NCBI RefSeq assembly: GCF_002699205.1 | Contig: NZ_PABT01000035.1 | Coordinates: 1 to 64,000 of the forward strand | Reading direction: 5' to 3' | DNA: 64,000 nt | Origin: Allomuricauda sp. | GTDB taxonomy: Bacteria; Bacteroidota; Bacteroidia; Flavobacteriales; Flavobacteriaceae | Program-made: the position numbers and the translations under genes | The notes under the pieces: generated by a model | The model's input: the letters and a program-made list of their open reading frames with translations, nothing else | What the model was told of the DNA's origin: nothing | The model's database searches: none | In this document: piece by piece, positions 26,777-44,984 of the stretch | Position numbering within the stretch: position 1 is the first letter of the stretch | Layout of the letters: every line of letters starts with the position of its first letter

Positions 26777-26916
26777 ATATTCTAGGTTTCACAAAACACC
26801 CATAAACAGCGTCAATCTATAACCAAATAATGTACTAGGAACATTCTGAACAATCCTGGGGGTCCTATACTATAAATCATTTCACTTTGATATAAATGAA
26901 CATAGCAGCAACAAAA

Positions 26917-26948
26917 AAGCACTGTCAACTTATTAATCGACAGTGCTT
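26917..26948 (-). terminator. Rho-independent terminator of the sigma/SusCD/amidohydrolase operon
   Basis: A perfect 10-bp stem (AAGCACTGTC / GACAGTGCTT) with a 12-base loop is followed on the minus strand by a T-run (complement of 26913-26918). It lies about 60 bp beyond the stop codon of the DASS transporter gene, the last gene of the run. Confidence 0.85.
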
Positions 26949-27006
26949 CACACCAATTGACCTATAGTAGGACAAAATACAATAAACGGAAGCTTTTCAT
27001 TAGGTA

Positions 27007-28455
27007 CTAACTAAGGTCCCAAACCATGGGAAGTACAAAATATACTATAATGGTCAACAGAATAATAGAAATAATGTTCATCCAGATTCCCTTGGTGACC
27101 ATATCGTTCATTTTTAGATAACCTGAACCAAAAACCACCGCATTCGGGGGCGTGGCCACTGGCAACATAAAGGCACATGATGCCGCTACCGTTGCACTTA
27201 TCATTAAATAATATGGGTGAACTCCCAACACTGGGGCCAATGACACCAATACGGGCAGAAGCATCGCAGTGGTGGCTATATTGGATGTAATCTCTGTCAG
27301 AAAATTAACTGTTGCTATTAAAATCAGCAATAGGATTATAAACGGTACTGTCTTTAAGGCAATCAATTTATTTCCGATCCACAGAGCAAGTCCACTACTT
27401 TCAAAACCTGCGGCCAATGCCAAACCGCCTCCAAACAACAATACTATGCCCCAAGGAAGTTTTACCGCATCTTCCCATGTCATCAAATGCTTTCCTTTGG
27501 TACTCGTCGGAAATACAAATAATAGAACGGCGGACGCAATACTGATTACCGTATCATCTATTCCAGGTATTAATTCTTGCAGCAAAAATGAGCGAGAAAT
27601 CCATGCCAATGCCGTTGTAATAAAAACGGCCAAGACAATTTTTTCTTCAAAGGACATTTTACCCAACTCCTTTAATTGTGTCTCAATTTCTTCGCGTCCC
27701 CCTGGAAAAGACTTTTGGGTAAATTTAAAAGCAAACTTGGTCAAATATTTCCAACAAATAAAAAGCAGGATAAATGCGATGGGGAAACCGAACAAGAACC
27801 ACTGTGAAAATGTTATTTCCTCACCAAAAGTTGTTTGCACCACCCCAGCTAGCACTAAATTGGTAGGAGTACCAATCAAAGTGGCCACGCCACCTATTGA
27901 CGCACTATATGCTATACCCAACATTAAAACTTTTCCGAAATTTAGATTTTCGTTTTCGATCGTCTTGGGATTATCCCGTAGTTGGGTCACGATGGCCATT
28001 GCCATGGGCAATATCATCACAGTGGCGGCTGTATTGGAAATCCACATGGACAGCAAGGCAGTTGCCAACATGAAACCCAGCACAATACTGGTAATATTGG
28101 TCCCGACAATTTTTATAATGGACAAAGCGATTCTTCTGTGCAGATTCCATTTTTCTATGGCAAGCGCCAAAATGAAACCGCCCATGTATAAAAAAATATA
28201 CTTATGCCCATAGGAGGCAGTGGTCTCACCAAGTTCCAATCCACCGGAAACTGGAAAAAGTACGATGGGCAGTAAAGCGGTCGCTGAAATGGAAATAGCT
28301 TCCGTAATCCACCATATGGCTACCCAGGCCACCGATGCCAAAACTGCATTGCCCTCATCGTTCAACCCTTCTGGATGAAAGAAAAATAGAATATAAAAAA
28401 AAGCCAATGGCCCTAGGACAAGACCTATCTTTTGTTTGGTTATTTGCATAATCAT
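27007..28455 (-). CDS. DASS/SLC13-family sodium:dicarboxylate symporter
   Basis: A 482-residue inner-membrane carrier with about 12 helices and the two re-entrant SNT-type motifs of the divalent anion:Na+ symporter family: MWISNTAATVMILPMAM in the first half and TEITSNIATTAMLLPVL in the second, together with LIGTPTNLVL. The family moves C4 dicarboxylates, citrate or sulfate with Na+. Its ATG overlaps the end of the Asp/Glu racemase gene by four bases. In this operon it most likely imports an acidic amino acid or dicarboxylate product (for example aspartate, N-acyl-aspartate or succinate) made in the periplasm; the exact ligand is inference. Confidence 0.92.
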   Translation of the reverse strand: MIMQITKQKIGLVLGPLAFFYILFFFHPEGLNDEGNAVLASVAWVAIWWITEAISISATALLPIVLFPVSGGLELGETTASYGHKYIFLYMGGFILALAIEKWNLHRRIALSIIKIVGTNITSIVLGFMLATALLSMWISNTAATVMILPMAMAIVTQLRDNPKTIENENLNFGKVLMLGIAYSASIGGVATLIGTPTNLVLAGVVQTTFGEEITFSQWFLFGFPIAFILLFICWKYLTKFAFKFTQKSFPGGREEIETQLKELGKMSFEEKIVLAVFITTALAWISRSFLLQELIPGIDDTVISIASAVLLFVFPTSTKGKHLMTWEDAVKLPWGIVLLFGGGLALAAGFESSGLALWIGNKLIALKTVPFIILLLILIATVNFLTEITSNIATTAMLLPVLVSLAPVLGVHPYYLMISATVAASCAFMLPVATPPNAVVFGSGYLKMNDMVTKGIWMNIISIILLTIIVYFVLPMVWDLS

Positions 28456-29255
28456 CTTTTTAAAATATAATCGACCCCAGCTTTCGCATGAATTTCGGTG
28501 GTATTAAAAACAGGGATATCCACATCTTCCTGAAAAATCATCAACGGAAACTCCGTACACCCAAGAATCACTCCCTCGGCCCCTTGTTTCCTCGCATTTT
28601 CAATGACCTCCATCACATAATCCTTTGAAGATGGCACTATTTCCCCATAGGTGAGCTCGTCGATAATGATCCTATGAAGCTCATCGATCACCTCCTGTTC
28701 TTCCGGAACCAGTACCTCAATACCATTGGCCTCGATTCTTTTTGTGATAAAGGTTTCCTCCATACTATACTTGGTACCGATAAAAAGTACTTTTTTCAAA
28801 CCTTTTTCCTTGACGGCATTCGCGGTGGCATCGGCGATATGTATGATCGGGAAATCCAGCTTTTCCTGAACGGCATCATACACTTTATGGGGGGTGTTGG
28901 CGCAGAAAAGAACGGTATTGGCCCCTGCTTTGTTAAGGGCCTGTCCGGCCACTGCCAACATGTGGGCGATGGAGTCCCATTTATTCTCTATTTGATATCG
29001 ATGTACCCTAGCTTGGTTAAGGGTATAGACCAATAAGGGCGGATTGGTATTGTTCCCATAATGATCGTTCACAGATTGATTGATCATACTATAATATTCT
29101 ACGGTGGAATGCCATGATGTTCCTCCTATCAACCCCAATACGTTCATTTCGGGATCTTCTTGTTTTTGATCATTGTTATCTTTCATTTTTTCCTCTACGG
29201 CTTCATTGCACGATGCAAGGGCCACTAGTAACAAGCAATACAAATATTTCTTCAT
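28452..29255 (-). CDS. Aspartate/glutamate racemase-family lipoprotein (periplasmic)
   Basis: A cofactor-independent racemase of the Asp/Glu/hydantoin superfamily with both catalytic cysteines in place: LFCANTPHK (about Cys118) and LGCTEFPL (about Cys233), and an opening glycine motif LGLIGGTSWHSTVEYY. Unusually for this cytoplasmic family it has a lipoprotein signal (YLYCLLLVALASC), so it should work in the periplasm anchored to a membrane. The ATG at 29255 is chosen over GTG at 29261 because it starts the signal peptide correctly. It is translationally coupled to the DASS transporter, suggesting that it interconverts D and L forms of the transported acidic amino acid or imide. Confidence 0.85.
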   Translation of the reverse strand: MKKYLYCLLLVALASCNEAVEEKMKDNNDQKQEDPEMNVLGLIGGTSWHSTVEYYSMINQSVNDHYGNNTNPPLLVYTLNQARVHRYQIENKWDSIAHMLAVAGQALNKAGANTVLFCANTPHKVYDAVQEKLDFPIIHIADATANAVKEKGLKKVLFIGTKYSMEETFITKRIEANGIEVLVPEEQEVIDELHRIIIDELTYGEIVPSSKDYVMEVIENARKQGAEGVILGCTEFPLMIFQEDVDIPVFNTTEIHAKAGVDYILKR

Positions 29256-29276
29256 AAACACGTTTATTCAATAGCA

Positions 29277-30167
29277 TTAATTTCCTTTACCGAGCAACTC
29301 GATCCATTGAGCTCTGTACCCCGTATTCCGAACCCCGTTGGAGTGCGCCCTTTTTCCTTCTGGAACCTCTAGATCAAACGCATAAATATGGTCTTCGGGA
29401 ATGTTCATCGCCTTGTAGGTCTCAATAATAGTTGCCGCGGTAGGCTCCTCTACATGGTAGGTGCCGTACCAACGATCCAAGGGCGTTTTGCTATCTTTAA
29501 AATACCATTTGGCTATTTTGCCCTTAGCGGAATAATCCCATCCCCCAGAAAAATCAATTACCCTGGCCACAACATGGTCTTTTGCTATAAAGGCCGACAT
29601 CCCTCCTCCTTGCGACTGTCCGGCAAGTGCTATTTCACTCCATTTTGGTTCGCCATTTTCCAAGTAACGGCCCCAATCCAGGTTTTTATCGTTCTCCGAC
29701 AGGTACTCCAAAAGTTTGGTAAGACGGTTAACAATGGCATCATAGGGTTTGTCATCTATCAACGTGAACGTAGTATCGCCATACACCCTCCTATTTCTAA
29801 ATTCCTCGGCACAATCAGAGTTCGCCACCAGCGCATCCCCCTTACATATCCGGGCAATCGCCGGAGTGTTTATATATGAAAGGTTGATGACCGCATACCC
29901 CTGCTGAACCGCCGTATAAAAGAGATCTTTCGGCCCCCTTAGGGCTATACCGTTCGTGCCCGGGATAAAAAGCAACAACTTTCCCTGTTCGTTGCTTGGG
30001 TCATAGGCCACAAAATGGGGCGTATCGGCGTTTTCTATTCTTGGGTCGGTCAGGGACGGCTTAATTTCCAACACCACGTTGGGAGCCGGGAACAAGCCGG
30101 GTTCCTGTGCAAAGGAGCAAACACATTGGGATAGAAATAAAATCGCCAACAACAACTGTTTTTTCAT
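29277..30167 (-). CDS. Secreted alpha/beta hydrolase
   Basis: A Sec-exported hydrolase of 296 residues starting at the internal ATG (30167), which begins a clean signal peptide (MKKQLLLAILFLSQ, cleaved near CSFAQ). The nucleophile elbow is GQSQGG, the oxyanion strand is LLFIPGTNG, and a C-terminal His in GKRAHSNGVRN completes a plausible triad. I cannot assign the substrate class; relatives include esterases and peptidases of unknown target. It sits between the creatininase-family and racemase genes with small gaps and is surely cotranscribed. Confidence 0.75.
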   Translation of the reverse strand: MKKQLLLAILFLSQCVCSFAQEPGLFPAPNVVLEIKPSLTDPRIENADTPHFVAYDPSNEQGKLLLFIPGTNGIALRGPKDLFYTAVQQGYAVINLSYINTPAIARICKGDALVANSDCAEEFRNRRVYGDTTFTLIDDKPYDAIVNRLTKLLEYLSENDKNLDWGRYLENGEPKWSEIALAGQSQGGGMSAFIAKDHVVARVIDFSGGWDYSAKGKIAKWYFKDSKTPLDRWYGTYHVEEPTAATIIETYKAMNIPEDHIYAFDLEVPEGKRAHSNGVRNTGYRAQWIELLGKGN

Positions 30168-30211
30168 AACACTATATCTGTATTCGGTTCTACAGGCCAT
30201 TGTCACACACA

Positions 30212-31075
30212 TTAAACCGTGATCAATTCATTCCATTTATCAATAAAATCGGCACAGGCCCTTACCACGTTTTTTGTGTTCTTTTCCCCTCTTTCCACGG
30301 TAGCCTCCTTGGGGTCCAATTCTCCCCATACGCCCGTTTCGGTCATTTCTATGGTAGATGTCCTTTTACCCGTTTCCGCGGCCTTTAAACCTTCGGAGAG
30401 AAACAACAGCTTTTCGGTAGGTTCTTCGTTGATTACCCCAGGCACCATATTCGCCAAATGTTTGGGCAGGGTCAGTTTTGTCGGCTTGGCTTTGTCCAAT
30501 TGTACCAGACTTGGCATCAGGTACAACGAATTGGATGTTTCGCCCGTACCTGCATGGCGGTCAAGGGCCCTGGTCTCTTTTTCCCCCTCACTTTGCAGAT
30601 AAGGCTTCACGGCAACACTGAAGTCTACGGCAACGGCCGAGGTCTTCTGGTTTATCTGATCCACCAAAAAGGTGGTGATCGCGGTGTTGCCCCCATGTGA
30701 GTTCATCAACATAAACCGCTTGAACCCATGTTTTATAAGGCTCTCCACGGTCTCCATATGTACACGTAGTATAGTTTCCGCACTTAGGGTAATCGTTCCC
30801 GCAAAGGCCATATGATAGGGAGACTGGCCCGCCATTAACACCGGTGCCACCAAAATATCACGCTCTTGGGCTATGAGCTTACATAGTTCTATGCCATTTA
30901 TAAAATCTGTTCCTATGGGCAAATGGCTGGAATGTTGCTCCAATGCCCCGATTGGAATAATGGCCAAATCCGATTTCTTTAAAAAATCCTGCACTTCTGG
31001 AACTGTCATGTGCGGCAAGTAGTTTTTGACCTTGTTTTCTTTCCAAAGTGGATTGGTGGGGGTTTCTTTCGTCAT
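30212..31075 (-). CDS. Creatininase-family metal-dependent amidohydrolase
   Basis: A 287-residue cytoplasmic enzyme of the creatininase fold. Metal ligands are visible: Glu and His in IGALEQHSSHLPIGTDF, the Asp of GTDF, the His of MNSHGGNTA, and a downstream HAGTGETS segment providing the usual His/Glu. The family includes creatinine amidohydrolase, the FAPy deformylase ArfB and the peptidase MftE, so it opens cyclic or formyl amides or cleaves special peptides. No signal peptide is seen, in contrast to most other enzymes in this operon, so it would act after import. The specific substrate is unknown. Confidence 0.88.
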   Translation of the reverse strand: MTKETPTNPLWKENKVKNYLPHMTVPEVQDFLKKSDLAIIPIGALEQHSSHLPIGTDFINGIELCKLIAQERDILVAPVLMAGQSPYHMAFAGTITLSAETILRVHMETVESLIKHGFKRFMLMNSHGGNTAITTFLVDQINQKTSAVAVDFSVAVKPYLQSEGEKETRALDRHAGTGETSNSLYLMPSLVQLDKAKPTKLTLPKHLANMVPGVINEEPTEKLLFLSEGLKAAETGKRTSTIEMTETGVWGELDPKEATVERGEKNTKNVVRACADFIDKWNELITV

Positions 31076-31185
31076 ATATCTAGATAATTATAACTATAGT
31101 AATTTGTATTTTAATGATGTCCGTGAATGGATATCGTTTATTTAAATGGACCGGTGTAATCGCCTAAGCATTGGGAAGGATACAA

Positions 31186-31662
31186 TCAGTCTTCCACTTC
31201 AACTACACATTCCACTTCAACGGCCTGTGCCCTTGGCAATGTTGCTACACCAATAGCTGCCCTGGCATGTAGCCCCCTTTCTCCAAAAACGGCTACCATT
31301 AGATCGGAAAAACCATCTATTACCTTGGGCTGCTCTATAAAATCCGGTGTAGAGTTCACCAGGGCCAACACCTTTACAATACGTTTTACTTTTTTTAGGT
31401 CGCCCAACATTTCCTTAAGAACGGCGATCTGGTTAATGGCCGTTAAACGTGCTCCTTCATAGCCTTTTTCTATAGAAATATCATCTCCCAGTTTTCCCGT
31501 TATCTCCACTCCATTTGCATACCTAGGTCCTTTTCCTGCCAAAAAAATAAGGTTTCCCGTACGTACCCCGTTCACATAATTGGCCACGGGGTTAGGGGCC
31601 TTAGGCAGCTCTATGCCCAACTCTTTTAACCTGGCCTCGGGATCGTAGACTTTGTGTTCCAT
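31186..31662 (-). CDS. RidA/YjgF-family enamine/imine deaminase-like protein
   Basis: A 158-residue cytoplasmic protein of the RidA superfamily. The opening is of the PEARLKELGIELPKAPNPV type with FLAGKGPRYANG, and the active-site Arg is in HARAAIGVATLPRAQAVEVE. This longer N-terminal variety (the YjgF/chorismate-mutase-like subgroup) is common beside catabolic enzymes. RidA proteins remove reactive enamines and imines made by amino-acid-degrading enzymes. It follows the 685-residue amidohydrolase by 2 bp. It suggests that amino-acid or imino-acid intermediates arise in the pathway. Confidence 0.9.
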   Translation of the reverse strand: MEHKVYDPEARLKELGIELPKAPNPVANYVNGVRTGNLIFLAGKGPRYANGVEITGKLGDDISIEKGYEGARLTAINQIAVLKEMLGDLKKVKRIVKVLALVNSTPDFIEQPKVIDGFSDLMVAVFGERGLHARAAIGVATLPRAQAVEVECVVEVED

Positions 31663-31664
31663 TC

Positions 31665-33722
31665 TTAATTCTGATTATCTCTATTGGGTATAAAATCCGC
31701 CGCTGTCCACAAGCCCTCGCTTTCATAATAATTTCCATTGGTCATTACCGCGGACACCGTCCTAATATTGTCTATTTTTTCCAATGGGTTTTTATCCAAG
31801 ATGGCGATATCGGCCTCTTTGCCAACTTCTATACTTCCCGTTACATCATCCATGCCCATGGCCTTGGCGGGCACTATCGTCGCCGTTCTGATGGCTTCCA
31901 AGGGAGTTAGTCCCCCTAATTTGTTATAGGACTCTATTTCCAAAAAGAGCCCGAATCCAGGAGCAAAGTTGTCGGTACCGGCAACAACGGGAATCCCCGC
32001 TTTATAGAACTTACCGATGACCTCGGCAGCTTTAATAATGTTTTGCTTTAATTTTTTAGCACGGGCTTCGGACGCTCCGGCCCTAAACCTTTTACTCTCA
32101 AAAAGTTCATAGGCCATTCTATAAGCATCCGGTTCTATGGTTTCCATGGGCTCACCTTCTGGTAATGTACGCATTACACCCAACCCAAGGGTTACATCCA
32201 AAACGGTACCGTGCTTTAGGTAAAAGGCGATGGCATCATTCACCATTTCGTCTGTAACTTCATTGTCCACCATGAAATAAGGGCCTAGATCCGATATTTT
32301 CTTATCTGTAAACAAAGCCCCTAAAATTCTATTGTAATGGCTTAGCATATCCATACCATCCTCTACTGCCAATCGCGCATCGTTCACTAGGGCAGGTACA
32401 TGGCCGGTGACCGTCATGCCCACTTTATGCGCCTCTTCGGCCAATACTTTCAATATCTCAGGTTCTATAGAGGTATATATCTTGATCTGCTTGTAACCGT
32501 TCCTATGGTACAGTGCCACTGTTTCCTTTGCCTCCTCTACCGATCTTGCCCGTATAACACCATTGCCCTTTATTCCAGGGCCATCGGTCATACCTGCCAA
32601 AAGAATATCGGGGCCCAATGCGCCGTCTTTGGCTATGGCGTCCCTAAAAGCGGTCGCGAACTCCAGTTCGTTTCCATTGTCCCTGATCGTGGTAACCCCA
32701 CCGGCCAAATAAGCGGGTGCCCATTGTACCTGGTTGGAGTGGGCGTGCATATCCCATAGTCCCGGGATCAGGGTCTTTCCTTTTACATCGATCACCTTGG
32801 CCCCTTTTGACACCTTTACGGACTCCCTTTTTCCAATCTCCACAATCTTGCCATCCTCAACAATGATCGTCATATCCTCTTTGATACCATCTCCGGCCAC
32901 ATCAACAACATCTCCCCCTACCAAGGCTACCACCGGGTATTCCGGGCCTTTCAGGTTTTGGGTGTACTCGGCAAGTTGGGCCATTTGTTCTTCTACATTA
33001 CCCTGGATAAAGGTTGGTAGCGCCTCTTCATATTCTTCTTTGATCATTTCCCTGATCTGGGTGTTCGCCTTCACCAAGGCGACCAAATTTTGCGACTCGT
33101 CCAACCAAATAGTTCTACCGCCCCAGTTTATACCGGTGGCAACATACCTATCCAATATTCTTTGCTCTCCACCTATCGTCACGGTATCCTTGGCCCTATG
33201 GGTCACCGTTACCTCTCCCCTTGGAAAGGTAGCCAAGCTATCCTGACCATATTTAAAATAACAATGGTACAGCATCATTTCTATGCCTGCGGGAATATTA
33301 CTGTGCAAGGGAAAGAAATGGGCGGGCACCTTTTTGGTCACCTTATCAAAATGTTTTTCCCGTACCGTAATTTCATCGGGACCAATTTTCTCTACTTCCA
33401 GTATATTGGTGGTATCCTTGGATATTCTTTTGCTGCTGTAATAAACAGGTTCCAAATCTTTTGTAAGCCGCAATTCCGAAACCACCCCCGTGATGCGTCC
33501 CCGCTCGTTTTCGCCCTGCATCGATTTTACGATGATGGTATCGTTACTGGTGTGCACCTCATAGGTTTCCTCACCGATCGGTGATTGTCTCCTGTGTACT
33601 ATGAATTTCCCCTCATCGGTGAAATTGTCCCACTTTGATGATTCCGATGTACATGAAACCAAGGATATGGACATGAATACACCTGCACATACAAATTTTG
33701 TGTATCTGGCAATACTTTTCAT
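31665..33722 (-). CDS. Lipoprotein amidohydrolase, Xaa-Pro/imide dipeptidase-like
   Basis: A 685-residue lipoprotein (MSISLVSC, Cys24) with an uncharacterised N-terminal domain (about 30-260, beta-rich, VHRRQSPIGEETYEVH) followed by an amidohydrolase TIM barrel. The metal-site set is complete: HAH in GLWDMHAHS (326/328), Lys in GYKQIKIYTS, His in TGHVPA, His in LSHYNR and Asp in AGTDNF. This set resembles bacterial Xaa-Pro and acyl-amino-acid dipeptidases. The C-terminal DVTGSIEVGKEADIAILDKNP is the standard end of the fold. A paralogue with the same architecture lies two genes upstream. It should act in the periplasm or at the surface on small amides or dipeptides. Confidence 0.88.
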   Translation of the reverse strand: MKSIARYTKFVCAGVFMSISLVSCTSESSKWDNFTDEGKFIVHRRQSPIGEETYEVHTSNDTIIVKSMQGENERGRITGVVSELRLTKDLEPVYYSSKRISKDTTNILEVEKIGPDEITVREKHFDKVTKKVPAHFFPLHSNIPAGIEMMLYHCYFKYGQDSLATFPRGEVTVTHRAKDTVTIGGEQRILDRYVATGINWGGRTIWLDESQNLVALVKANTQIREMIKEEYEEALPTFIQGNVEEQMAQLAEYTQNLKGPEYPVVALVGGDVVDVAGDGIKEDMTIIVEDGKIVEIGKRESVKVSKGAKVIDVKGKTLIPGLWDMHAHSNQVQWAPAYLAGGVTTIRDNGNELEFATAFRDAIAKDGALGPDILLAGMTDGPGIKGNGVIRARSVEEAKETVALYHRNGYKQIKIYTSIEPEILKVLAEEAHKVGMTVTGHVPALVNDARLAVEDGMDMLSHYNRILGALFTDKKISDLGPYFMVDNEVTDEMVNDAIAFYLKHGTVLDVTLGLGVMRTLPEGEPMETIEPDAYRMAYELFESKRFRAGASEARAKKLKQNIIKAAEVIGKFYKAGIPVVAGTDNFAPGFGLFLEIESYNKLGGLTPLEAIRTATIVPAKAMGMDDVTGSIEVGKEADIAILDKNPLEKIDNIRTVSAVMTNGNYYESEGLWTAADFIPNRDNQN

Positions 33723-33767
33723 TGATCTTATATTTTTTTATTTTTTTGGTCCTATTCCCACCTTATA

Positions 33768-34889
33768 TCAAGGGAACTTGGGTACGTATTTGTTAAAATA
33801 ATAGAGGTTGAGCTCATCGGAGTTGCTCTCTATAATATCTGGTTTTCCATCTCCGTTCAGATCACTGACCATAATATCATAGGTGTTGAATTTTTTATCG
33901 CTCAATACTATTTTTTTCCAACTTTTACCATCTTCCTGATTTAGAAAAACAGTATTGGGAGCGGCCACATTACCTATGACAATATCCATAGTGCCATCCA
34001 TATCCATATCGGCAACCGACAGGGAATATGATTTATCGGAACTGGCATCGAATACCATTTTTCTATTAAAATCCCCTTTTTTACTTCCAAAATAAATCAC
34101 GTTAGGCTCTCCTATATTAGCTGTTACGATATCTAAATATCCATCTTTGTCCATATCGGCAATAGCAACAGATCTGGTATTATCCGTACCCGTACCATAG
34201 GGTATTCTTTTAGAGAAATTAAGCTTGCCATCATTTAGATACACAAAATTGGGCTGCTCGTCCCTATTGGCCAAAATAAGGTCGTTATGGCCATCAGCGT
34301 TCATATCCGCCACTTCAACATCTATCGTAGAATCTTTTTTAGAACCAAAACCTATAGATTTGGTAAAGTTTCCCTTTCCATCATTAAGGCATATCTCATT
34401 TTCCTTTCCACGGTTGGTTATTAGAATATCCATATCACCATCACCATCGATGTCCGCAACTACGATATTTCTAGTGGGCGCATACGCTTCACCGAACCTA
34501 GAACCTTTTGTGAATTTCCCATTTCCATCATTAATAAAAATGTAATTGGGCGCCATATCGTTACCAACGGCTATATCCAAATCGCCATCATTGTCAAAAT
34601 CGGCAAGCTCGGTGGAATAACTGGTTTCTTGCTCGTCACCCAAAATCTGTGAAACGGTAAATACGCCCCTGCCATTATTAAAGAAAACCCTATTTTGACC
34701 TGGCCAATGGCGACCGTTGGCCACGAGTATATCCACATCGCCATCCTTGTCTATATCTCCCAAGCCCATGGATGCCGTACGCTCTTTATAGGTACCTAAA
34801 ATTAACCTGCCACTGGTAAAGAACTCAGAAGACTGGCTATAACCTGTAGCTACAAAAAGTGAAAAAAGAAATATATATATCTGTTTCAT
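33768..34889 (-). CDS. Secreted VCBS/FG-GAP repeat beta-propeller protein
   Basis: A 373-residue secreted protein (signal peptide YIFLFSLFVATGYSQ) built from about seven repeats of 45-50 residues, each with a calcium-loop motif such as DIDKDGDVDILVANG, DFDNDGDLDIAVGND, DIDGDGDMDILITNR or DLNGDGKPDIIESNS. This gives a seven-bladed integrin-like propeller. No catalytic domain is attached. Placed between two lipoprotein amidohydrolases, it may bind the substrate or scaffold the enzymes at the cell surface; this is inference, and such propellers are otherwise of unknown role. Confidence 0.88.
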   Translation of the reverse strand: MKQIYIFLFSLFVATGYSQSSEFFTSGRLILGTYKERTASMGLGDIDKDGDVDILVANGRHWPGQNRVFFNNGRGVFTVSQILGDEQETSYSTELADFDNDGDLDIAVGNDMAPNYIFINDGNGKFTKGSRFGEAYAPTRNIVVADIDGDGDMDILITNRGKENEICLNDGKGNFTKSIGFGSKKDSTIDVEVADMNADGHNDLILANRDEQPNFVYLNDGKLNFSKRIPYGTGTDNTRSVAIADMDKDGYLDIVTANIGEPNVIYFGSKKGDFNRKMVFDASSDKSYSLSVADMDMDGTMDIVIGNVAAPNTVFLNQEDGKSWKKIVLSDKKFNTYDIMVSDLNGDGKPDIIESNSDELNLYYFNKYVPKFP

Positions 34890-34939
34890 TATTATTTTTT
34901 TTAAATGTATGATTGGTGAGTTTGCCCGTTATTACGGAT

Positions 34940-36925: not shown

Positions 36926-36984
36926 AGATAGATATTAAAAAATATGGTACGTTAAAAATGTATTCGATAAAGCCCGAAGAACCA

Positions 36985-38133
36985 TCAAGGCTTTAAGGTC
37001 TCTTTGTAGAACCGAAGCCAGTTCAGGCCTAATATTTTTTCGATATCCCCGGTACTATATCCTCTTTTGTCCAATACCTTGGCCACCTGTAAATATCGAT
37101 CCGGTTTATCGAGCTCGGGGATCCATGGCGGCCACTGTACCTTATAGGATGGCTTAAAACGTGTCAACCTGGGTACGTACCAATTTTCGCGCGTGGCCCC
37201 ACTAGCCTCCAGACCCTGGATGGCAAAATCCGATGCAAGCCCTACATGATCGATACCTCCGATCTTGACCGCATGGTCGATATGGTCCACATAGGTTTCC
37301 AAGGTCGTATCCGTTCCAAGGTTCGGACCGATCATATAGCCCAGACAAATAATACCGATAATACCACCCTTATCGGCCATGGCCTTGATCTGCTCGTCCG
37401 TTTTGGCCCGGGGATGGTTTTTGTGCAATGCCTCGCACATGGAGTGGTTTATGGAGACCGGTGCTTTACTGTACGCTATGCCATCATTGGTGGTCTCTTT
37501 TCCACAGTGCGATAGGTCAACGATAATGCCCAGCTCGTTCATACGTTCAACGACCTCTATACCAAAATCGGACAGGCCACAATTTGTACGTTCCGTACTT
37601 CCGTCCCCCAAATAGTTTCGCTCATTGTAGGTCAACTGCATCCAGCGCATTCCTGCATCGTACAGCGTATCCAAATTTTTGATGGATCTACCCACCATCG
37701 TAGAGTTTTGAAAACCGAGCATCACGGCTACTTTCCCTTCCTTTTTGGCCCGGTTATAGTCATCGGCACTTGTGGCCAAGATCAATCGGTCAGGGTTTTC
37801 CTTTATGATGGTTTGCCATTCGTTCAAGTTCCTCAGTCCTTTCTCCAAATTTCCAGAGTCAACGGATGCATTGAATCCCGTATAGCCCGATTCGGCAAGG
37901 GCCTTAAAAGAATCCTCATTCCAGTTTCGGGAAATGATCAATCCGTCAACGACAATTGCCTTTTTATATAGTTCTTCGATGTTTCTTAGTGGGTTGACAC
38001 TCCCAATGTCTTGTGGCTTCCCTACATTTTTAGGTATGGACTCCATAATGGATGAAAAAGAGTATGCCATCTGGCTTGGAAATACGGCTCCAAGAGATAA
38101 CATTTTAGCAATGTTTCTTCTGTTTTTGTTCAA
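36985..38133 (-). CDS. M19 (renal dipeptidase-like) protein of a subfamily lacking canonical metal ligands
   Basis: A 382-residue member of peptidase family M19. It starts at TTG (38133); no ATG gives the leader. The leader NRRNIAKMLSLGAVFPS has a twin-arginine look, so export is likely. The second half of the site is present: His209 in VDLSHC, His230 in SINHSM and Asp302 in GLASDF. The usual first-metal HxD is replaced by VDGLIIS (61-67), and the bridging Glu of GxEG is Gln142 (LGFQNS). This is a known bacterial side branch (the QNxT/LTYNERN type) whose activity is unsettled. It is the first gene after the SusD hairpin. Confidence 0.85.
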   Translation of the reverse strand: MNKNRRNIAKMLSLGAVFPSQMAYSFSSIMESIPKNVGKPQDIGSVNPLRNIEELYKKAIVVDGLIISRNWNEDSFKALAESGYTGFNASVDSGNLEKGLRNLNEWQTIIKENPDRLILATSADDYNRAKKEGKVAVMLGFQNSTMVGRSIKNLDTLYDAGMRWMQLTYNERNYLGDGSTERTNCGLSDFGIEVVERMNELGIIVDLSHCGKETTNDGIAYSKAPVSINHSMCEALHKNHPRAKTDEQIKAMADKGGIIGIICLGYMIGPNLGTDTTLETYVDHIDHAVKIGGIDHVGLASDFAIQGLEASGATRENWYVPRLTRFKPSYKVQWPPWIPELDKPDRYLQVAKVLDKRGYSTGDIEKILGLNWLRFYKETLKP

Positions 38134-38192
38134 AATAATCAGCGTTTATATTGAATGACAATTTATTATCAATAAAATTAACATAAATTAAA

Positions 38193-38240
38193 ATACATTG
38201 GAGAGGGGGAACCCATCAATCTGATGCTTCTCCAATGTAT
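38193..38240 (-). terminator. Intercistronic hairpin between susD and the M19 gene
   Basis: A perfect 12-bp stem (ATACATTGGAGA / TCTCCAATGTAT) with a 24-base loop; on the minus strand it is followed by AT-rich sequence. It sits in the 161-bp gap after susD and could reduce transcription into the enzyme genes. Confidence 0.65.
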
Positions 38241-38294
38241 ATAATTTTACAAACACCCTCCTTTATCCGGAGGTTACAGGTATCGCAACAACTA

Positions 38295-39698
38295 TTAATA
38301 ACCTGGGTTCTGTTCTATGTTTGGATTAACATCCGTTTCGTTCTGTGGTATCGGCAATATATTGGTATCATCACCATAGGGTATATAGCAAATACTAGCG
38401 GTACATTGGTTTCTTACTATATCCTTCTTGTACCTCATCAAATCCCAAAGCCTTTGCCCCTCAAAACATAGTTCCAACCTTCTTTCAAGTAATATTTCCT
38501 CTATCAGTGCCTCACCAGTGGCAGTAACATCGGGTGCAGAGGGAAGTGCCCTTTGGCGAACCTTGTTCAAGTCTTCTTGGGCCCCGGTAATATTGGTGCC
38601 TATTTGAGCTCTTGCTTCTGCCCTGATCAGGTAAATTTCGGCAAGACGCATCACTTTTATGTTATCGTACCCAAGTACATCGGGATATTTGTTCATCCTA
38701 TATGGTGCATAGTCACCGGCCAACAGCTCATCTTCAATGAAGATCTGCAATCTGGCATCATTCGGGTCATAAAGTGATATGACGTCATTGGAAGGCAGAT
38801 AATCTCCATATCCATCCACCACATACATGGCACCCAAGTTGTTCCCTCCTTGGTTATCCGGCTCGGTCTGTGATATTTCAAATATCGATTCGGATGTATT
38901 GTCCTGAGACCACAAGGTCAAATAATCAGCATTTTCAATCAAACTAAACCCACCTGTTTCAATAACTTCCGTCGCCATGGCTTCGGCATTTTCCCAATCT
39001 TCCATATATAGGTACACCCTGGCCAACAATGCTTTAACAGCTATAGCGGAAAGGGTACTGGAGTCGCCAGACCTTGAAGTATCACCAATCAGGGTCAAGG
39101 CCGTGGTCATATCCGAAATAATCTGATCATACACCTCTGCCACCGTATTCCTAGTGGGTTCTATGGTATAATCAAAATCGAGTATAATCGGAACGCCCAA
39201 ATGACTCGCATCGGAAGTGTACGTATAATGATTGGCAAAAAGGCGTACCAAATCAAAATAAATCATTCCCCTAAGGGCATAGGCCTCTCCCATAATATGG
39301 TCTTTTTCATCTTGGGATGCGGCAGTCACCTCAATATCCGAATTGATAATATTGTTAAGGGCATTATTGGAATAGTACAAACCTGTCCATAAAGCACTGG
39401 CCTGGGCATCGGAAACACTTTGTACATGCTGCGCATAATCCACCACCCTGTTGGCCTGTTCGTTCTGTTTGACATCATCCGCCATTACATCTGGGATCAA
39501 GAACATATATCTTCCATAGTAATAGGCACTTTGAAATTCATCGTATACCCCAGTAATCGAAGTCTCCAGATCTTCCAAGCTCGTCAAAGCATCTTCATTT
39601 GAAACGGAACTCTGTGGGCTAACCTCTAAAAATGATTCTGAACATGACAAGAAGAGTCCCATCACAATCAATAATGTGATTTTATTATAAGTTTTCAT
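38295..39698 (-). CDS. SusD/RagB-like outer-membrane lipoprotein (third pair)
   Basis: A 467-residue surface lipoprotein (ITLLIVMGLFLSC, Cys about 19). Classical SusD marks are AYALRGMIYFDLVRLFANHY, VMRLAEIYLIRAEARAQIGT and the end block ERRLELCFEGQRLWDLMRYK followed by PIPQNETDVNPNIEQNPGY. It lies 16 bp after the STN-SusC gene. As the neighbours are peptidase, amidohydrolase and racemase genes, with no glycosidase among them, the ligand is probably not a sugar polymer. Confidence 0.93.
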   Translation of the reverse strand: MKTYNKITLLIVMGLFLSCSESFLEVSPQSSVSNEDALTSLEDLETSITGVYDEFQSAYYYGRYMFLIPDVMADDVKQNEQANRVVDYAQHVQSVSDAQASALWTGLYYSNNALNNIINSDIEVTAASQDEKDHIMGEAYALRGMIYFDLVRLFANHYTYTSDASHLGVPIILDFDYTIEPTRNTVAEVYDQIISDMTTALTLIGDTSRSGDSSTLSAIAVKALLARVYLYMEDWENAEAMATEVIETGGFSLIENADYLTLWSQDNTSESIFEISQTEPDNQGGNNLGAMYVVDGYGDYLPSNDVISLYDPNDARLQIFIEDELLAGDYAPYRMNKYPDVLGYDNIKVMRLAEIYLIRAEARAQIGTNITGAQEDLNKVRQRALPSAPDVTATGEALIEEILLERRLELCFEGQRLWDLMRYKKDIVRNQCTASICYIPYGDDTNILPIPQNETDVNPNIEQNPGY

Positions 39699-39714
39699 TA
39701 GTCTTTTTTTTAAG

Positions 39715-42700
39715 TTATAGTTTGATATCTAAGCCTAAAGAAATTGTTTTCATTGCTGGAGTTGTTCCAACATAGCTCCCATTTATAGCTTGTTCAGGAT
39801 CTATATACAAATCTTTGTGTTTGGTGAAGGTCAGGATATTGGTTCCCCTTGCGTACAACCTCAAAGCGTTGAGATGGAACAATGAAGTCACCGACTCTGG
39901 AAAATTGTAGGCTACCGTCAAATCCTTCAATCGGATATAACTTCCATCGTACAGCCATCTTGACTGGTTTGCTTCGTTACTACCTGATTGTCCTCCCCAA
40001 ACGAATTTAGGGAACAGGGCATCGGTCTTTCCAGGAACCCATCGGTTCTCGAACAAATAAGTTGCGGTACTTCTGGGTGTCAACCTTCCATCGCCTAATG
40101 ATCCCCTTGCCCTACTATCAAACAAGTAGTTGCCATAAGAGTACATGAAGTTGGCGCTCAAACTAAGTCCTTTATAGGATACAAGGGTGTTGAACCCTCC
40201 ATAAAAATCCGGTGTTGCGGATTTGCCCACCAGAAAACGCTCTGCCTCACCAATATCGTTGGTAATGGTGGTCCTGGTCTCGTCGGTGTACCATTGTGGG
40301 TCACCGTTGGTCTGGTCCACACCGGCCCAGTCATACAGGTAAAAAGATTGAAAATCCTCTCCTACCTGTCTTCTGTATGCCCCATCGGTATAGTCTTCAT
40401 CCAATTGGGTAATTCTATTTTTCAGGAAGGTGGTGTTAAAACCTAGACTCCATCTAAAATCTTTTTTGTTGATGATGTCCCCATTCAAGGAAATTTCCAA
40501 TCCCGAGTTGGTCATCTCACCATAATTTTGGGTCAATTCGGTAAATCCGGTCGTACGGGAAATCGGAACATCCAAAATCAAATCAGATGAAACTCTTTTG
40601 AAGTATTCCACCGTACCATTGATTCGATTAAAGAAACCGAAATCCAACCCCACATTGAAATTATCTTGGGTTTCCCATGTCAAATCCGAGTTTTCCAACT
40701 GTAAAGGGCTTCCCCCTGGTGAACCATTGTAATCCTCACCGTAGGTATACAATCCCAAGGAAGCAAAGTTCCCGATTGCCGCATTACCGGTCACACCATA
40801 CGAACTTCTTAACTTAAGGATATCTATAAATGTTAGATCATCAAACAGGGCCTCTTTGTTTATGTTCCAGCTAACCCCTACCGAATAGAACGTACCAAAT
40901 CTATTGTTCTCACCAAATCTTGAAGAACCATCTCGCCTAATACTACCAGAAAGATAATACTTGCTGGCATAATTATAGTTGGCTCTAAGGAACATGGAAT
41001 TAAAGGTATATTCCGACTTGGTTCCGCCCACAGTAAATTCGGAAGAAGCACTGCTCAAGGTCTTTACTATGTCGTTCGGGAAGTTTGTTCCCGATGCCCA
41101 ACTACTTTCCTTAATGGTCTGTTGTGCCTCATAACCACCAAGAAAACTAAAATAGTGGTCATCGTTCAAGGTAAAGTTATAGTTGACCGTTTGGGTACCT
41201 ACCCATGTTTTACTGGACACTGTTCCTTCATAGGCATAACCGTTGTAATCATATCCAGATCCATATCGGCGGTTATCATATTGGCTCTCATCAATGTCTA
41301 TCAAATCAAAGTTCCATTGAGATCTAAAAACCAAGTTTTTGATAGGGGTCACAGAAACCGCAAAGTTGTCTATAATCCGGTTGGTTTTGGTCTCCCAAGT
41401 ATCATCCCCGCTCAAACTACCAACGGGATTACTTCCGATAGGGAAATAATTTATGTGTTCTGCATTGTACTCCCCCTCCTCATCATAAATTGGAATAAGT
41501 GGGGACAGTTCCAAGGTATTCTTAAACGGGTTGTTCCAGGAACCCCCATCGGGTGCCGTACTGGATTTAATATCCGAAATGGTTATGTTATTGGAAATGG
41601 TCAGGTAATCACTTGCCTTATATTCCAAATTGGCACGGGTACTGAACCTTTTGAATCCATAACCAATGATATACCCTTCTTGGTCCATATAGCCAGCGGA
41701 CATAAAATACTTGACCCTGTCCGTGGCACCACTTACACTAAGGTCATAGCTCTGCGTAACCCCGGTACGTGTGATGGCATCCAGCCAGTTGGTATCCGTT
41801 GGTTCTCCTGTCGATGGATCTATCTGCTGGGTGAACCTGGAATTCAATCGTGCCAATGCCTCTTCATAGGTATCTCCTTGGTTCACATATCCTTCAATGA
41901 ACAGTTCTTTGTACTGTGCGGCATTCAATGGTTTCAATATGTCTTTGGATGCTTGGGAATTGAACCCTGTGAGTGTTTTTAATTCGATTGTAGCTTTACC
42001 TGATTTACCTTTTTTGGTTGTTATCAGGATTACCCCGTTTGCCCCTCTAGATCCATATATCGCAGTGGAGGCTGCATCTTTCAATACACTGATGCTTTCT
42101 ATATCGTTTGGGTTAATGGTCGACATAACATTGGAGCTGGCCCCGTCGTTATCGTTCAGTGCAAGACTTCCGGATTGCAGTGGAATACCATCAATAACGT
42201 ACAAAGGTTCACTGGATGCATTGATGGACCCAATCCCCCTAATTCTTATTTGCGTGTTCGATCCTGGGGCACCATCCGATGCGGAAGCCTGTAAACCCGC
42301 TACATTTCCTCGTAACGATTGCTCAAAGGTAGAAGTTGGAACTTGTTCAAGCTCTGCGCTTTTAACAACACCGACAGAACCGGTGACGGATTCTTTTGTT
42401 TGGGTACCATAAGCCACAACGACCACTTCATCCAAGGAAGCAACATCTTCCTTCATCACCACATTGATCTGACTTTTGTCCCCCACGGGGATACGTTGGG
42501 TGACCATACCTATATAGGAGAACACCAGAACGTCCCCCTCTTCAACATTAACGACATAGTTACCATCAAAATCGGTCTGTGTTCCCTGGGATGTTCCATC
42601 CACAATTACATTGACGCCGGGCAAAGGCGCTCCAGCATCGTCGGTAACTGTTCCTGACACTGATTTTTGAAAGGGGACCGTGATGTCCGTGGTTTCGTCA

Positions 42701-43053
42701 TCTTTCCCTTTGGATTCCTCTGATACTTTTACGATAATTTGTTTCCCTATAATAGAATAGGTAAGTGAAGTTCCAGCAAATGCCTTTTCCAAAATGGCTG
42801 GCAATTTTGCTTTGGCATACTTTAACGATATTTTCTTTTTGCTTTGTAGCACATCGTCTTTGTAAAAAAAGACGTAATCACTTTTGCTTTGAATTTCATC
42901 AAAAAATTCTTCTACGGAGACGTTCTTTACATTTATCTGTATTTCGTTCTGCGCCCGTGCATAATTACCATACACCGACGATAGTCCGATACCAATAAAC
43001 AATAAAAAAATTCTCATAATTGTCAGTACAGCTGAGCTAAAGGTATTTTTCAT
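39715..43053 (-). CDS. SusC/RagA-family TonB-dependent transporter with STN domain (third pair)
   Basis: A 1112-residue outer-membrane importer: signal peptide (FLLFIGIGLSSVYGNYARA), STN signalling domain (about 38-88, IQINVKNVSVEEFFDEIQSK), CarbopepD_reg_2 (about 135-210), plug (about 215-345, VVVVAYGTQTKESVTGSVGV and SVLKDAASTAIYGSRGANG) and barrel ending in TISLGLDIKL. The STN domain is expected to signal through the FecR encoded immediately upstream to the ECF sigma factor beyond it, so the whole operon would be substrate-inducible. A hairpin separates it from fecR. Confidence 0.94.
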   Translation of the reverse strand: MKNTFSSAVLTIMRIFLLFIGIGLSSVYGNYARAQNEIQINVKNVSVEEFFDEIQSKSDYVFFYKDDVLQSKKKISLKYAKAKLPAILEKAFAGTSLTYSIIGKQIIVKVSEESKGKDDETTDITVPFQKSVSGTVTDDAGAPLPGVNVIVDGTSQGTQTDFDGNYVVNVEEGDVLVFSYIGMVTQRIPVGDKSQINVVMKEDVASLDEVVVVAYGTQTKESVTGSVGVVKSAELEQVPTSTFEQSLRGNVAGLQASASDGAPGSNTQIRIRGIGSINASSEPLYVIDGIPLQSGSLALNDNDGASSNVMSTINPNDIESISVLKDAASTAIYGSRGANGVILITTKKGKSGKATIELKTLTGFNSQASKDILKPLNAAQYKELFIEGYVNQGDTYEEALARLNSRFTQQIDPSTGEPTDTNWLDAITRTGVTQSYDLSVSGATDRVKYFMSAGYMDQEGYIIGYGFKRFSTRANLEYKASDYLTISNNITISDIKSSTAPDGGSWNNPFKNTLELSPLIPIYDEEGEYNAEHINYFPIGSNPVGSLSGDDTWETKTNRIIDNFAVSVTPIKNLVFRSQWNFDLIDIDESQYDNRRYGSGYDYNGYAYEGTVSSKTWVGTQTVNYNFTLNDDHYFSFLGGYEAQQTIKESSWASGTNFPNDIVKTLSSASSEFTVGGTKSEYTFNSMFLRANYNYASKYYLSGSIRRDGSSRFGENNRFGTFYSVGVSWNINKEALFDDLTFIDILKLRSSYGVTGNAAIGNFASLGLYTYGEDYNGSPGGSPLQLENSDLTWETQDNFNVGLDFGFFNRINGTVEYFKRVSSDLILDVPISRTTGFTELTQNYGEMTNSGLEISLNGDIINKKDFRWSLGFNTTFLKNRITQLDEDYTDGAYRRQVGEDFQSFYLYDWAGVDQTNGDPQWYTDETRTTITNDIGEAERFLVGKSATPDFYGGFNTLVSYKGLSLSANFMYSYGNYLFDSRARGSLGDGRLTPRSTATYLFENRWVPGKTDALFPKFVWGGQSGSNEANQSRWLYDGSYIRLKDLTVAYNFPESVTSLFHLNALRLYARGTNILTFTKHKDLYIDPEQAINGSYVGTTPAMKTISLGLDIKL

Positions 43054-43106
43054 ACTTTTGTTTTGGTTATTTAATGTTGCTGTTCTACAGCGATGTTGTT
43101 TTAATT

Positions 43107-43134
43107 GCCAGAAGATGTTGCAGCATCTTCTGGC
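43107..43134 (-). terminator. Hairpin between fecR and susC
   Basis: An 11-bp perfect stem (GCCAGAAGATG / CATCTTCTGGC) with a 6-base loop lies in the 125-bp gap. It may end or dampen the sigma/anti-sigma transcript so that susC is driven from its own promoter nearer to the gene. Confidence 0.6.
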
Positions 43135-43178
43135 TTTTCACTAACTCAAAAAATTTACTTCATAAAAGGGCTAAGGGT

Positions 43179-44240: not shown

Positions 44241-44312
44241 TCCTTTTGTTGACCAATTTTTAATTTGGGATTCTTTTGTCTTAGTTTATGTTATGTAAAG
44301 CGCACCTTTATG

Positions 44313-44324
44313 GTTTTATAGACA
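44313..44324 (-). promoter_or_regulatory. 12-bp motif upstream of fecR (copy 2 of a shared element)
   Basis: Minus-strand TGTCTATAAAAC, an exact copy of the element upstream of the sigma gene at 45045-45056. It could be an ECF-sigma promoter element; no TAnnTTTG box is near. Confidence 0.4.
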
Positions 44325-44342
44325 CATAATGGGCTTTTTTTC

Positions 44343-44984
44343 TCAAGAGCGCAGTACCTTAAGCGCCCTGTATATCAAAGTTCTAGCAGTAGGTATGGAG
44401 ATCCCCATGATTTCGGATATCTCCTCATAACTTTTTTCTTGGTTGAATCGAAGAAAAATACCGGTCTTTTGTTTTTTGGTGAGTTTTTCCAAAACAACAG
44501 AAAGTTTCTCTTGTTTTTCAGATCTTCGCTCTGCCCTTATAATCGCGTCTTCGTGAGATTTTATATGGTGCATTAAACTTCCGGTCACCATAAATTCACT
44601 GTCCTTGGTCAAATTAACCTCACGACTTTTATATTTCCTATTGAGTTTTCTTTTTAAGCACTTGAACAGATAATACTTTCCATCATCATGAACCGCCACG
44701 TTTTTCCTGTACTTATAAAGGTCCAGAAATAAATCATGAATACAGTCCATGACGTAGTTCCTGTCTTGCGTATGGGAGATCCCATATTCAAAAAGACTAT
44801 CTATATGCAAGTTGTAAAGATCGCCCAGAGCGCTTTGATCTCCTTTTTTTAGATTGTCCCAAAGCTTGTTTTCAGTGTTTCTGATCACAAACACTTCACG
44901 CCTCTCGCTTTTATCTTCAGGCACACCCAATATCCTACTTTCATTAGCTTTCAAAATTGGCTCTGGCCCTCCATTTTTTTGCAT
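44343..44984 (-). CDS. ECF RNA polymerase sigma factor (FecI-like)
   Basis: A 213-residue ECF sigma factor: region 2 about 40-105 (ALGDLYNLHIDSLFEYG, DCIHDLFLDLYKYR) and region 4 about 155-213 (LEKLTKKQKTGIFLRFNQE, SYEEISEIMGISIPTARTLI). The first 35 residues before NTENKLWDNLKKGDQ are an unusual extension; a later start is possible, although the ATG at 44984 is the only strong one. It partners the downstream FecR and would transcribe the susCD/amidohydrolase operon when the transporter is loaded. Confidence 0.93.
   Translation of the reverse strand: MQKNGGPEPILKANESRILGVPEDKSERREVFVIRNTENKLWDNLKKGDQSALGDLYNLHIDSLFEYGISHTQDRNYVMDCIHDLFLDLYKYRKNVAVHDDGKYYLFKCLKRKLNRKYKSREVNLTKDSEFMVTGSLMHHIKSHEDAIIRAERRSEKQEKLSVVLEKLTKKQKTGIFLRFNQEKSYEEISEIMGISIPTARTLIYRALKVLRS

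What the first reader, a model, noticed from the sequence alone, without database searches (positions are those of the whole stretch)
26917..44984. Sigma-controlled SusCD operon dedicated to non-glycan (peptide/amide/imide) uptake and racemisation
Seen: ECF sigma, FecR, STN-SusC and SusD are followed on one strand by M19-like protein, two lipoprotein amidohydrolases, secreted beta-propeller, RidA, creatininase-family enzyme, secreted alpha/beta hydrolase, lipoprotein Asp/Glu racemase and DASS symporter, ending in a strong terminator. No glycosidase is present. Known: STN/FecR/ECF units respond to the SusC ligand; DASS carriers import dicarboxylates. Inference: a surface-to-cytoplasm route that imports an acidic amide, dipeptide, cyclic imide or D-amino-acid conjugate, hydrolyses and racemises it in the periplasm and imports an Asp-like product. 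I know of no described pathway with this set.
Basis: partly seen in the sequence, partly recalled or inferred. Interest (0 to 1): 0.72.

Follow-up and report, generated by a model that had tools for sequence, protein, structure and literature searches.

The report
Flavobacterial peptide-to-aspartate uptake operon
This is a real, repeatedly inherited set of marine-bacterial genes that appears to pull small peptides or amides through the outer membrane and break them down, most likely to aspartate; the exact food molecule is still unknown.

Summary
The operon is real: thirteen same-strand genes from ECF sigma factor to DASS carrier, ending at a terminator. Of 44 named loci found through AH1, 18 keep SusC, SusD, beta-propeller and AH1; 10 also keep M19-like, AH2, racemase-family and DASS, in the same order. 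Sibling loci point to peptides: peptidases, a canonical M19 dipeptidase or an amino-acid permease beside the core, one or two loci each. They also point to aspartate: an aspartate-dehydrogenase-like gene follows DASS in five loci and, in 40 genomes, occurs in exactly the 13 with the creatininase-like gene, unlinked in 8. In 234 family genomes it occurs in 3, all among the 7 with AH1. Tree-based contrasts are too few to prove this. Two labels weaken: the M19-like protein lacks three recalled metal ligands, and the racemase-family protein has Ala where 5hqt has Thr83. Best reading: a SusCD-fed peptide/amide locus with an aspartate-type product; substrate unproven.

The parts
44343..44984 (-). 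ECF-type sigma factor (region 4 hit)
   Evidence: orthologue next to FecR in L015, L030, L046, L055
43179..44240 (-). FecR anti-sigma/transducer
   Evidence: 18 of 44 named loci
39715..43053 (-). SusC-type TonB receptor with STN signalling domain
   Evidence: 18 of 44 named loci
38295..39698 (-). SusD lipoprotein lid
   Evidence: 19 of 44 named loci
36985..38133 (-). Divergent M19-fold protein, twin-arginine N-terminus, three of six recalled metal ligands replaced
   Evidence: 33 of 44 named loci
34940..36925 (-). AH2, lipoprotein amidohydrolase; metal motifs present by eye
   Evidence: 17 of 44 named loci
33768..34889 (-). Secreted FG-GAP beta-propeller
   Evidence: 27 of 44 named loci
31665..33722 (-). 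AH1, lipoprotein amidohydrolase of the prolidase/carboxypeptidase type, with an N-terminal extension of about 260 residues
   Evidence: anchor
31186..31662 (-). Rid-family protein, no signal here (signal or lipobox by eye in 16 of 26 sequences)
   Evidence: 23 of 44 named loci
30212..31075 (-). Creatininase-family protein, no signal
   Evidence: 13 of 44 named loci; 1 of 199 family genomes
29277..30212 (-). Secreted alpha/beta hydrolase, BPSS1187 family, GQSQGG motif
   Evidence: 11 of 44 named loci
28452..29261 (-). Lipoprotein Asp/Glu-racemase-family protein, Cys235 kept, Ala121 at the position of Thr83 of 5hqt
   Evidence: 11 of 44 named loci
27007..28455 (-). DASS (SLC13-type) anion symporter
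   Evidence: 18 of 44 named loci
26916..26949 (-). Intrinsic terminator

Best explanation
A SusCD-fed, ECF/FecR/STN-regulated utilisation locus for small peptides or N-acyl amides whose end product is aspartate or a close analogue. SusCD brings the ligand into the periplasm. Exported hydrolases (M19-like, AH1, AH2, alpha/beta hydrolase) cleave amide bonds, and the racemase-family lipoprotein adjusts the acidic product. DASS carries the dicarboxylate across the inner membrane. In the cytosol the Rid protein and/or the creatininase-like protein finish it, and an aspartate-dehydrogenase-like enzyme encoded elsewhere in this genome turns it into oxaloacetate and ammonia. Shown here: gene content, order, conservation, topology signals (by eye), co-occurrence. 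Inferred: every reaction, the direction of flow, the substrate, the regulation.
For: Conserved block: SusC/SusD/FG-GAP/AH1 in 18 of 44 named loci, the wider set with racemase-family and DASS in 10 of 44, same order and strand. Peptide side: in L032 an S9/DPP-IV gene and an M1 aminopeptidase gene run with gaps of 52 and 11 bases into M19-FGGAP-AH1-RidA; L026 and L029 carry a full-profile M19 dipeptidase 67 and 69 bases upstream of AH1 and no divergent one in the fetched locus; L036 and L038 have an amino-acid permease 16 bases after RidA; AH1's nearest solved sequences and folds include prolidase, Lys/Arg carboxypeptidase and ochratoxinase. Aspartate side: AspDH-like gene directly after DASS in L011, L012, L013, L016, L018; AspDH in 13 of 40 AH1 genomes, exactly the 13 whose locus has the creatininase-like gene (creatininase checked genome-wide); AspDH in 3 of 234 family genomes, all among the 7 AH1-positive (naive hypergeometric 1.7e-5); BhcB-like and asparaginase-N-like genes in other siblings. 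The window genome has an unlinked AspDH and an unlinked BhcB-like gene.
Against: AspDH- and BhcB-like proteins score under NCBIfam's equivalog cut-offs (206 of 267; 400 and 411 of 550). BhcB-like is ordinary in the genus (31 of 36 genomes). On the AH1 tree 4 independent contrasts in creatininase-like presence exist: AspDH goes the same way in 3, does not differ in 1, p 0.25. The AspDH query was itself picked from an operon. G173 has AspDH without the creatininase-like gene, and L035's genome has a partial 50% creatininase-like match without AspDH. The M19-like and racemase-family proteins lack canonical residues. Three Cellulophaga loci have a GH63/MGH1-like gene downstream; a sulfatase gene faces DASS in the L010/G504 locus, and the closest racemase relative outside the operon (65%, G119) lies beside two sulfatase genes and SusC-like genes. 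Permease and peptidase neighbours are in one to two loci each.
Confidence: 0.52

Rival explanations
1. Peptide/amide utilisation locus as above, but the product is not aspartate: the dehydrogenase, racemase-family and Rid proteins handle another acidic or imine-bearing residue (for example a dehydro-amino acid or beta-hydroxy-aspartate).
For: AspDH-like, BhcB-like and racemase-family proteins all miss defining cut-offs or residues; Rid occurs with the M19-like gene and AH1 in 23 of 44 named loci and bears a signal by eye in 16 of 26 sequences, as if an enamine/imine were released by the hydrolases themselves.
Against: Closest families of three different accessory enzymes name aspartate or hydroxyaspartate.
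Confidence: 0.25
2. Recycling of peptidoglycan or other D-amino-acid peptides, with D-Glu or D-Ala as the point of the pathway.
For: Racemase family includes Asp/Glu enzymes; exported hydrolases of peptide-hydrolase families.
Against: No muramidase, amidase or LD-peptidase family among the hits of the 13 proteins; the accessory dehydrogenase is AspDH-like.
Confidence: 0.1
3. A glycan or glycoconjugate locus in which the sugar enzymes are elsewhere.
For: SusCD is common in glycan loci (recalled); GH63/MGH1-like gene after DASS in L015, L028, L030; a sulfatase facing DASS in the L010/G504 locus, and two sulfatases beside the 65% racemase relative of G119.
Against: No glycosidase, lyase or sulfatase in the operon; peptidase and amino-acid permease neighbours in siblings.
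Confidence: 0.08
4. A detoxification or quenching locus against a bioactive acyl-amino-acid or peptide, not mainly nutrition.
For: AH1's neighbours include ochratoxinase, molinate and phenylurea hydrolases; the operon is sporadic (AH1 in 4 of 199 family genomes).
Against: Inner-membrane importer and AspDH co-occurrence suggest carbon/nitrogen use.
Confidence: 0.05

Closest known systems
SusCD utilisation loci, including the peptide importer RagAB
   Same: SusC/SusD pair; SusC's closest solved sequences are a SusC homologue (8aa4) and RagA (6sli); ECF/FecR/STN control
   Different: No glycan enzymes in the window's operon; an amide-hydrolase, racemase-family and dicarboxylate-carrier set that I recall from no described locus
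cog1228-type prolidase / Lys-Arg carboxypeptidase / ochratoxinase amidohydrolases (2qs8, 3mtw, 4c5y)
   Same: C-terminal amidohydrolase domain and fold
   Different: Lipoproteins with an N-terminal extension of about 240-260 residues that the shown matches do not cover; far below the XaaProDiPepCaul cut-off (105 and 90 of 500)
2i5g, an M19-fold protein deposited as amidohydrolase
   Same: Best solved relative of the M19-like protein, sharing loss of HxD and Gln in place of Glu
   Different: Here with a twin-arginine N-terminus and tied to AH1/Rid
D-Asp use through an Asp racemase in Arctic marine bacteria (PMC6965332; passages seen)
   Same: Asp racemase as key enzyme in marine D-Asp use (about 104-fold up in the transcriptome, D-Asp racemisation shown there)
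   Different: There for free D-Asp; no SusCD, hydrolase set or lipoprotein form in the passages seen

Membership tests
SusCD utilisation locus | adjacent SusC and SusD genes | tested here: met
   conserved pair
SusCD utilisation locus | linked, co-conserved degradative genes | tested here: met
SusCD utilisation locus | ligand-dependent induction and transport | not testable with these tools
   needs expression and binding data
Polysaccharide utilisation locus | glycoside hydrolase or polysaccharide lyase in the locus | tested here: not met
   no such family in the 13 proteins; but a GH63/MGH1-like gene follows DASS in L015, L028, L030
M19 membrane dipeptidase | HxD motif and bridging Glu of the binuclear site (ligand list recalled) | tested here: not met
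   DGL.I in the orthologue alignment, Gln142 invariant in 12; Sco3058 has Glu at that place
M19 membrane dipeptidase | two later His and the Asp ligand (recalled) | tested here: met
   His209, His230, Asp302 invariant in 12 sequences
Aspartate/glutamate racemase | family membership | tested here: met
   PF01177 134 bits, TIGR00035 192 of 93 bits; the PRK10200 equivalog cut-off is missed, 202 of 417
Aspartate/glutamate racemase | two catalytic residues (Thr83/Cys197 as the pair of the E. coli enzyme is recalled) | tested here: not met
   Cys at 197 kept, Ala at 83 in 12 of 12 operon sequences and in 13 of 13 further racemase-family sequences listed, of which three are from operon copies fetched again
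DASS anion symporter | TIGR00785 above cut-off | tested here: met
   322.5 of 198.6 bits
Creatininase (creatinine amidohydrolase) | TIGR04448 equivalog cut-off | tested here: not met
   96.8 of 235 bits
Rid imine deaminase | conserved Arg and Glu (as described in PMC4433059, passages) | tested here: inconclusive
   HARAA...VE.E pattern conserved in 26 sequences; match to Arg105 made by eye from recall, not by a structural alignment
Aspartate dehydrogenase (sibling and trans-encoded gene) | NF009830 equivalog cut-off | tested here: inconclusive
   206 of 267 bits, but best family; Asp_DH_C above Pfam's cut-off in the own genome, which rings in 3 of 14 control genomes

The most novel reading that the evidence does not exclude
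An undescribed SusCD-fed pathway of marine Bacteroidota for an aspartate-type amide (X-Asp, D-Asp, beta-hydroxy-Asp or dehydro-Asp peptides), with extracytoplasmic Asp-racemase-family and, in many relatives, extracytoplasmic Rid lipoproteins, and a creatininase-like enzyme that works together with an aspartate dehydrogenase usually encoded elsewhere in the genome. It would be a route by which D-amino-acid or modified-Asp peptides of refractory dissolved organic matter are consumed.
Probability: 0.38. Interest if true: 0.76.

Novelty: new variant of a known kind. Interest (0 to 1): 0.6.

Why it matters
SusCD systems are mostly read as glycan machines; a conserved locus built for a peptide or amide with an aspartate-type product would widen what outer-membrane importers of marine Bacteroidota are known to feed on. 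D-Asp is among the D-amino acids measured in marine dissolved pools (PMC6965332, passages), and in that paper's main text the words Bacteroidetes and Flavobacteriaceae do not occur. It also gives a testable function to a creatininase-family branch, a divergent M19 branch and a Rid protein that carries an export signal in many relatives.

Tried and rejected
Mycosporine-like amino acids as substrate: considered because of Rid, amidohydrolase and creatininase-family (IolN-like) hits; one literature search gave 10 listings, none naming such genes in what was shown; dropped. Creatinine use: the creatininase cut-off is missed. Hydantoin use: no hydantoin racemase among the family or PDB hits of the racemase-family protein. 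BhcB-like as a specific partner: rejected, 31 of 36 same-genus genomes have it. The match between DASS and Rid location looked striking (10 of 10 Rid without signal are in DASS loci; 15 of 16 with signal are in loci without DASS; L041 is the exception), but DASS was scored in the fetched locus only, signals were read by eye, and it is one change on the Rid tree and two on the AH1 tree (2 independent contrasts, p 0.5), so it is weak evidence. Neighbours of the unlinked AspDH genes: across nine fetched regions only AspDH itself is shared by all; other genes are shared by at most three. 3-keto-disaccharide-hydrolase gene upstream (45465-46229): no orthologue in 44 named loci. Racemase relatives on plasmids: 254 records, all under 60% identity, not used further. 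(an alanine-racemase family in the own genome) only served to learn where the window lies. Literature: 0 papers held 4 of 5 of SusD, creatininase, RidA, amidohydrolase, membrane dipeptidase; 0 held aspartate dehydrogenase with creatininase; 0 held periplasmic + aspartate racemase + lipoprotein + Bacteroidetes; one search gave 4 listings that look unrelated; two searches gave 0; one search gave 5 listings, 8 of 59, 8 of 15. Only open-licence PMC papers were searched. Papers: passages of PMC6965332 and PMC4433059; all others search listings only.

Rows dropped: the AH1 tree (43 rows) leaves out L047, L049, L050, L051, L056 and L057; one search counts AspDH on 42 of these 43 rows (L024 not held). 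After coordinate errors, one search used 12 of 13 intended rows, 14 of 20, 12 of 15; the error messages named one row each, and I left out further rows without testing them.
Full report
Observation. The last gene is followed by a 15-pair stem with a T-run at 26949-26916. None of the thirteen proteins hits a glycosidase, lyase or sulfatase family in Pfam.

Conservation. A scan of the named species genomes with AH1 gave 44 loci. Counting tblastn matches of at least 40% identity over at least 35% of length: FecR 18, SusC 18, SusD 19, M19-like 33, AH2 17, FG-GAP 27, Rid 23, creatininase-like 13, alpha/beta hydrolase 11, racemase-family 11, DASS 18, upstream 3-keto-disaccharide hydrolase 0, each of 44; loci are cut at 10 kb or by contig ends (the sigma factor is seen in 3 of 44 for that reason), so misses are not all absences. 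Ten of 44 keep SusC, SusD, M19-like, AH2, FG-GAP, AH1, racemase-family and DASS together, in the window's order and strand. The operon is sporadic: at E <= 1e-60 AH1 is in 4 of 199 family genomes, in 4 of 36 genomes of the window's genus and in 0 of 23 other genomes of the order. A smaller core, M19-like + AH1 + Rid, recurs in loci without a SusC match, among them Saprospiraceae, Roseivirga and Paraglaciecola.

What the siblings add. Peptide and amino-acid genes flank the core in loci without the SusCD pair: S9/DPP-IV and M1 peptidases running into M19-FGGAP-AH1-RidA in L032; a full-profile M19 dipeptidase 67 and 69 bases upstream of AH1 in L026 and L029; an amino-acid permease 16 bases after RidA in L036 and L038. 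I annotated 18 selected neighbours and window proteins, not every neighbour. In Paraglaciecola (L041) a TonB receptor, FecR, ECF sigma and a DASS gene (44% identity) lie beside the core. Accessory genes inside or just behind the operon are an MBL-fold hydrolase (15 loci), an asparaginase-N-domain protein (5), a BhcB-like PLP enzyme (4) and an AspDH-like protein (5).

Aspartate dehydrogenase. The AspDH-like gene follows DASS in L011, L012, L013, L016 and L018. I asked for the genomes behind 41 AH1 loci; 40 were held (not L024). It occurs in 13 of 40, exactly the 13 whose locus has the creatininase-like gene, and in 8 of these 13 it lies on another contig or far away on the same one. In 199 family genomes it is in 1, the window's own. 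AspDH is in 2 of 199 family genomes (own and G173) and in 2 of 36 same-genus genomes (own and G504), all AH1-positive. Pooled, 3 of 234 genomes, all among 7 AH1-positive ones; the naive hypergeometric value is 1.7e-5. Limits: the query was chosen from an operon; G173 has AspDH but no creatininase-like gene; on the AH1 tree AspDH follows the creatininase-like gene in 3 of 4 independent contrasts and does not differ in the fourth, p 0.25. The window genome carries AspDH and a BhcB-like gene on other contigs, but BhcB-like is in 31 of 36 same-genus genomes and so says little.

Enzyme checks. AH1's sequence and model match prolidase, Lys/Arg carboxypeptidase and ochratoxinase (model mean pLDDT 74, parts of the active-site region under 50). 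By eye the HxH, Lys, His, His, Asp metal motifs are present in AH1 and AH2. The M19-like protein has the twin-arginine start but DGL.I for DGHxD and Gln for the bridging Glu (the ligand list is recalled), as has its nearest solved relative 2i5g. So the dipeptidase label is not supported, although L026 and L029 suggest that a canonical M19 can stand in its place. The racemase-family protein keeps Cys at position 197 of 5hqt but has Ala at 83; Thr83/Cys197 as the catalytic pair is recalled, not from a call. By eye, 9 of 12 operon sequences have a lipobox, one (L028) a signal without Cys, two (L009, L010) have the signal in another frame. Racemase-family and alpha/beta-hydrolase genes occur together in 11 of 11 named loci that have either, and sit side by side in two genomes of another family, with no other operon gene labelled in the 20 kb fetched (L093, L095); there the racemase-family protein shows no signal. 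In 296 genomes of the order, 30 have a racemase-family match at E <= 1e-40, and two reach 1e-100: the own genome and G119, whose copy (65%) lies beside two sulfatase and SusC-like genes, which is a point for a glycan link.

Compartments. Rid lacks a signal in 10 of 26 sequences, all in DASS loci, and has one in 16 of 26, of which 15 are in loci without DASS. That would fit Rid acting on whatever DASS imports, but it is one change on the Rid tree and two on the AH1 tree. The creatininase-like gene, also without signal, is found only in DASS loci (13 of 13).

Mechanism. I commit to: SusCD import of a small peptide or N-acyl amide, exported amide hydrolysis, DASS import of a dicarboxylate, and cytosolic conversion ending in aspartate and oxaloacetate. 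Peptide/amide rather than glycan I hold at about 0.8; an aspartate-type product at about 0.55; racemisation as such at about 0.45; all reactions are inferred.

Novelty. It belongs to the kind 'SusCD utilisation locus' but with a gene set for which the searches in open-licence PMC papers found no description. That is no proof of absence from subscription journals.

Noticed in passing
window 43072-43134: A perfect 12-pair palindrome (43107-43134) and a second 12-pair inverted repeat (43072-43098) sit between FecR and SusC; on the minus strand neither is followed by a T-run, so they may be a regulatory element.
   Followed up: partly
window 45465-46229: A 3-keto-disaccharide-hydrolase-domain protein lies upstream on the same strand but is not conserved with the operon (0 of 44 loci).
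   Followed up: yes
L093:8762-10526, L095:9638-11445: Racemase-family and BPSS1187-family alpha/beta-hydrolase genes are adjacent in genomes of another family, without other operon genes in the 20 kb fetched.
   Followed up: partly
L091:9352-13337: A racemase-family gene 65% identical to the window's lies beside two sulfatase genes and near SusC-like genes.
   Followed up: partly
L015:15672-18296, L028:17884-20532, L030:15601-18228: A GH63/MGH1-like glycoside hydrolase about 250 bases after DASS in three Cellulophaga loci (L030's copy annotated; clustered).
   Followed up: partly
L009:15330-15560, L010:14430-14720: The racemase signal peptide is in a different frame from the enzyme part in both; could be sequencing error or real.
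   Followed up: no
L028:14423-15310: The alpha/beta-hydrolase gene of this Cellulophaga locus appears as two ORFs with a stop inside the matched stretch.
   Followed up: no
L045:12794-13276 and relatives: A 161-residue protein made of the asparaginase N-terminal domain only, in five sibling loci.
   Followed up: no
L098:9703-10395 (own genome, contig 25): A second, signal-less racemase-family gene of the window's genome with the same CANT motif.
   Followed up: partly
window 20448-24611: A hybrid two-component regulator of 1387 aa (Reg_prop, Y_Y_Y, HisKA, HATPase, receiver, AraC) beyond the operon's end.
   Followed up: no
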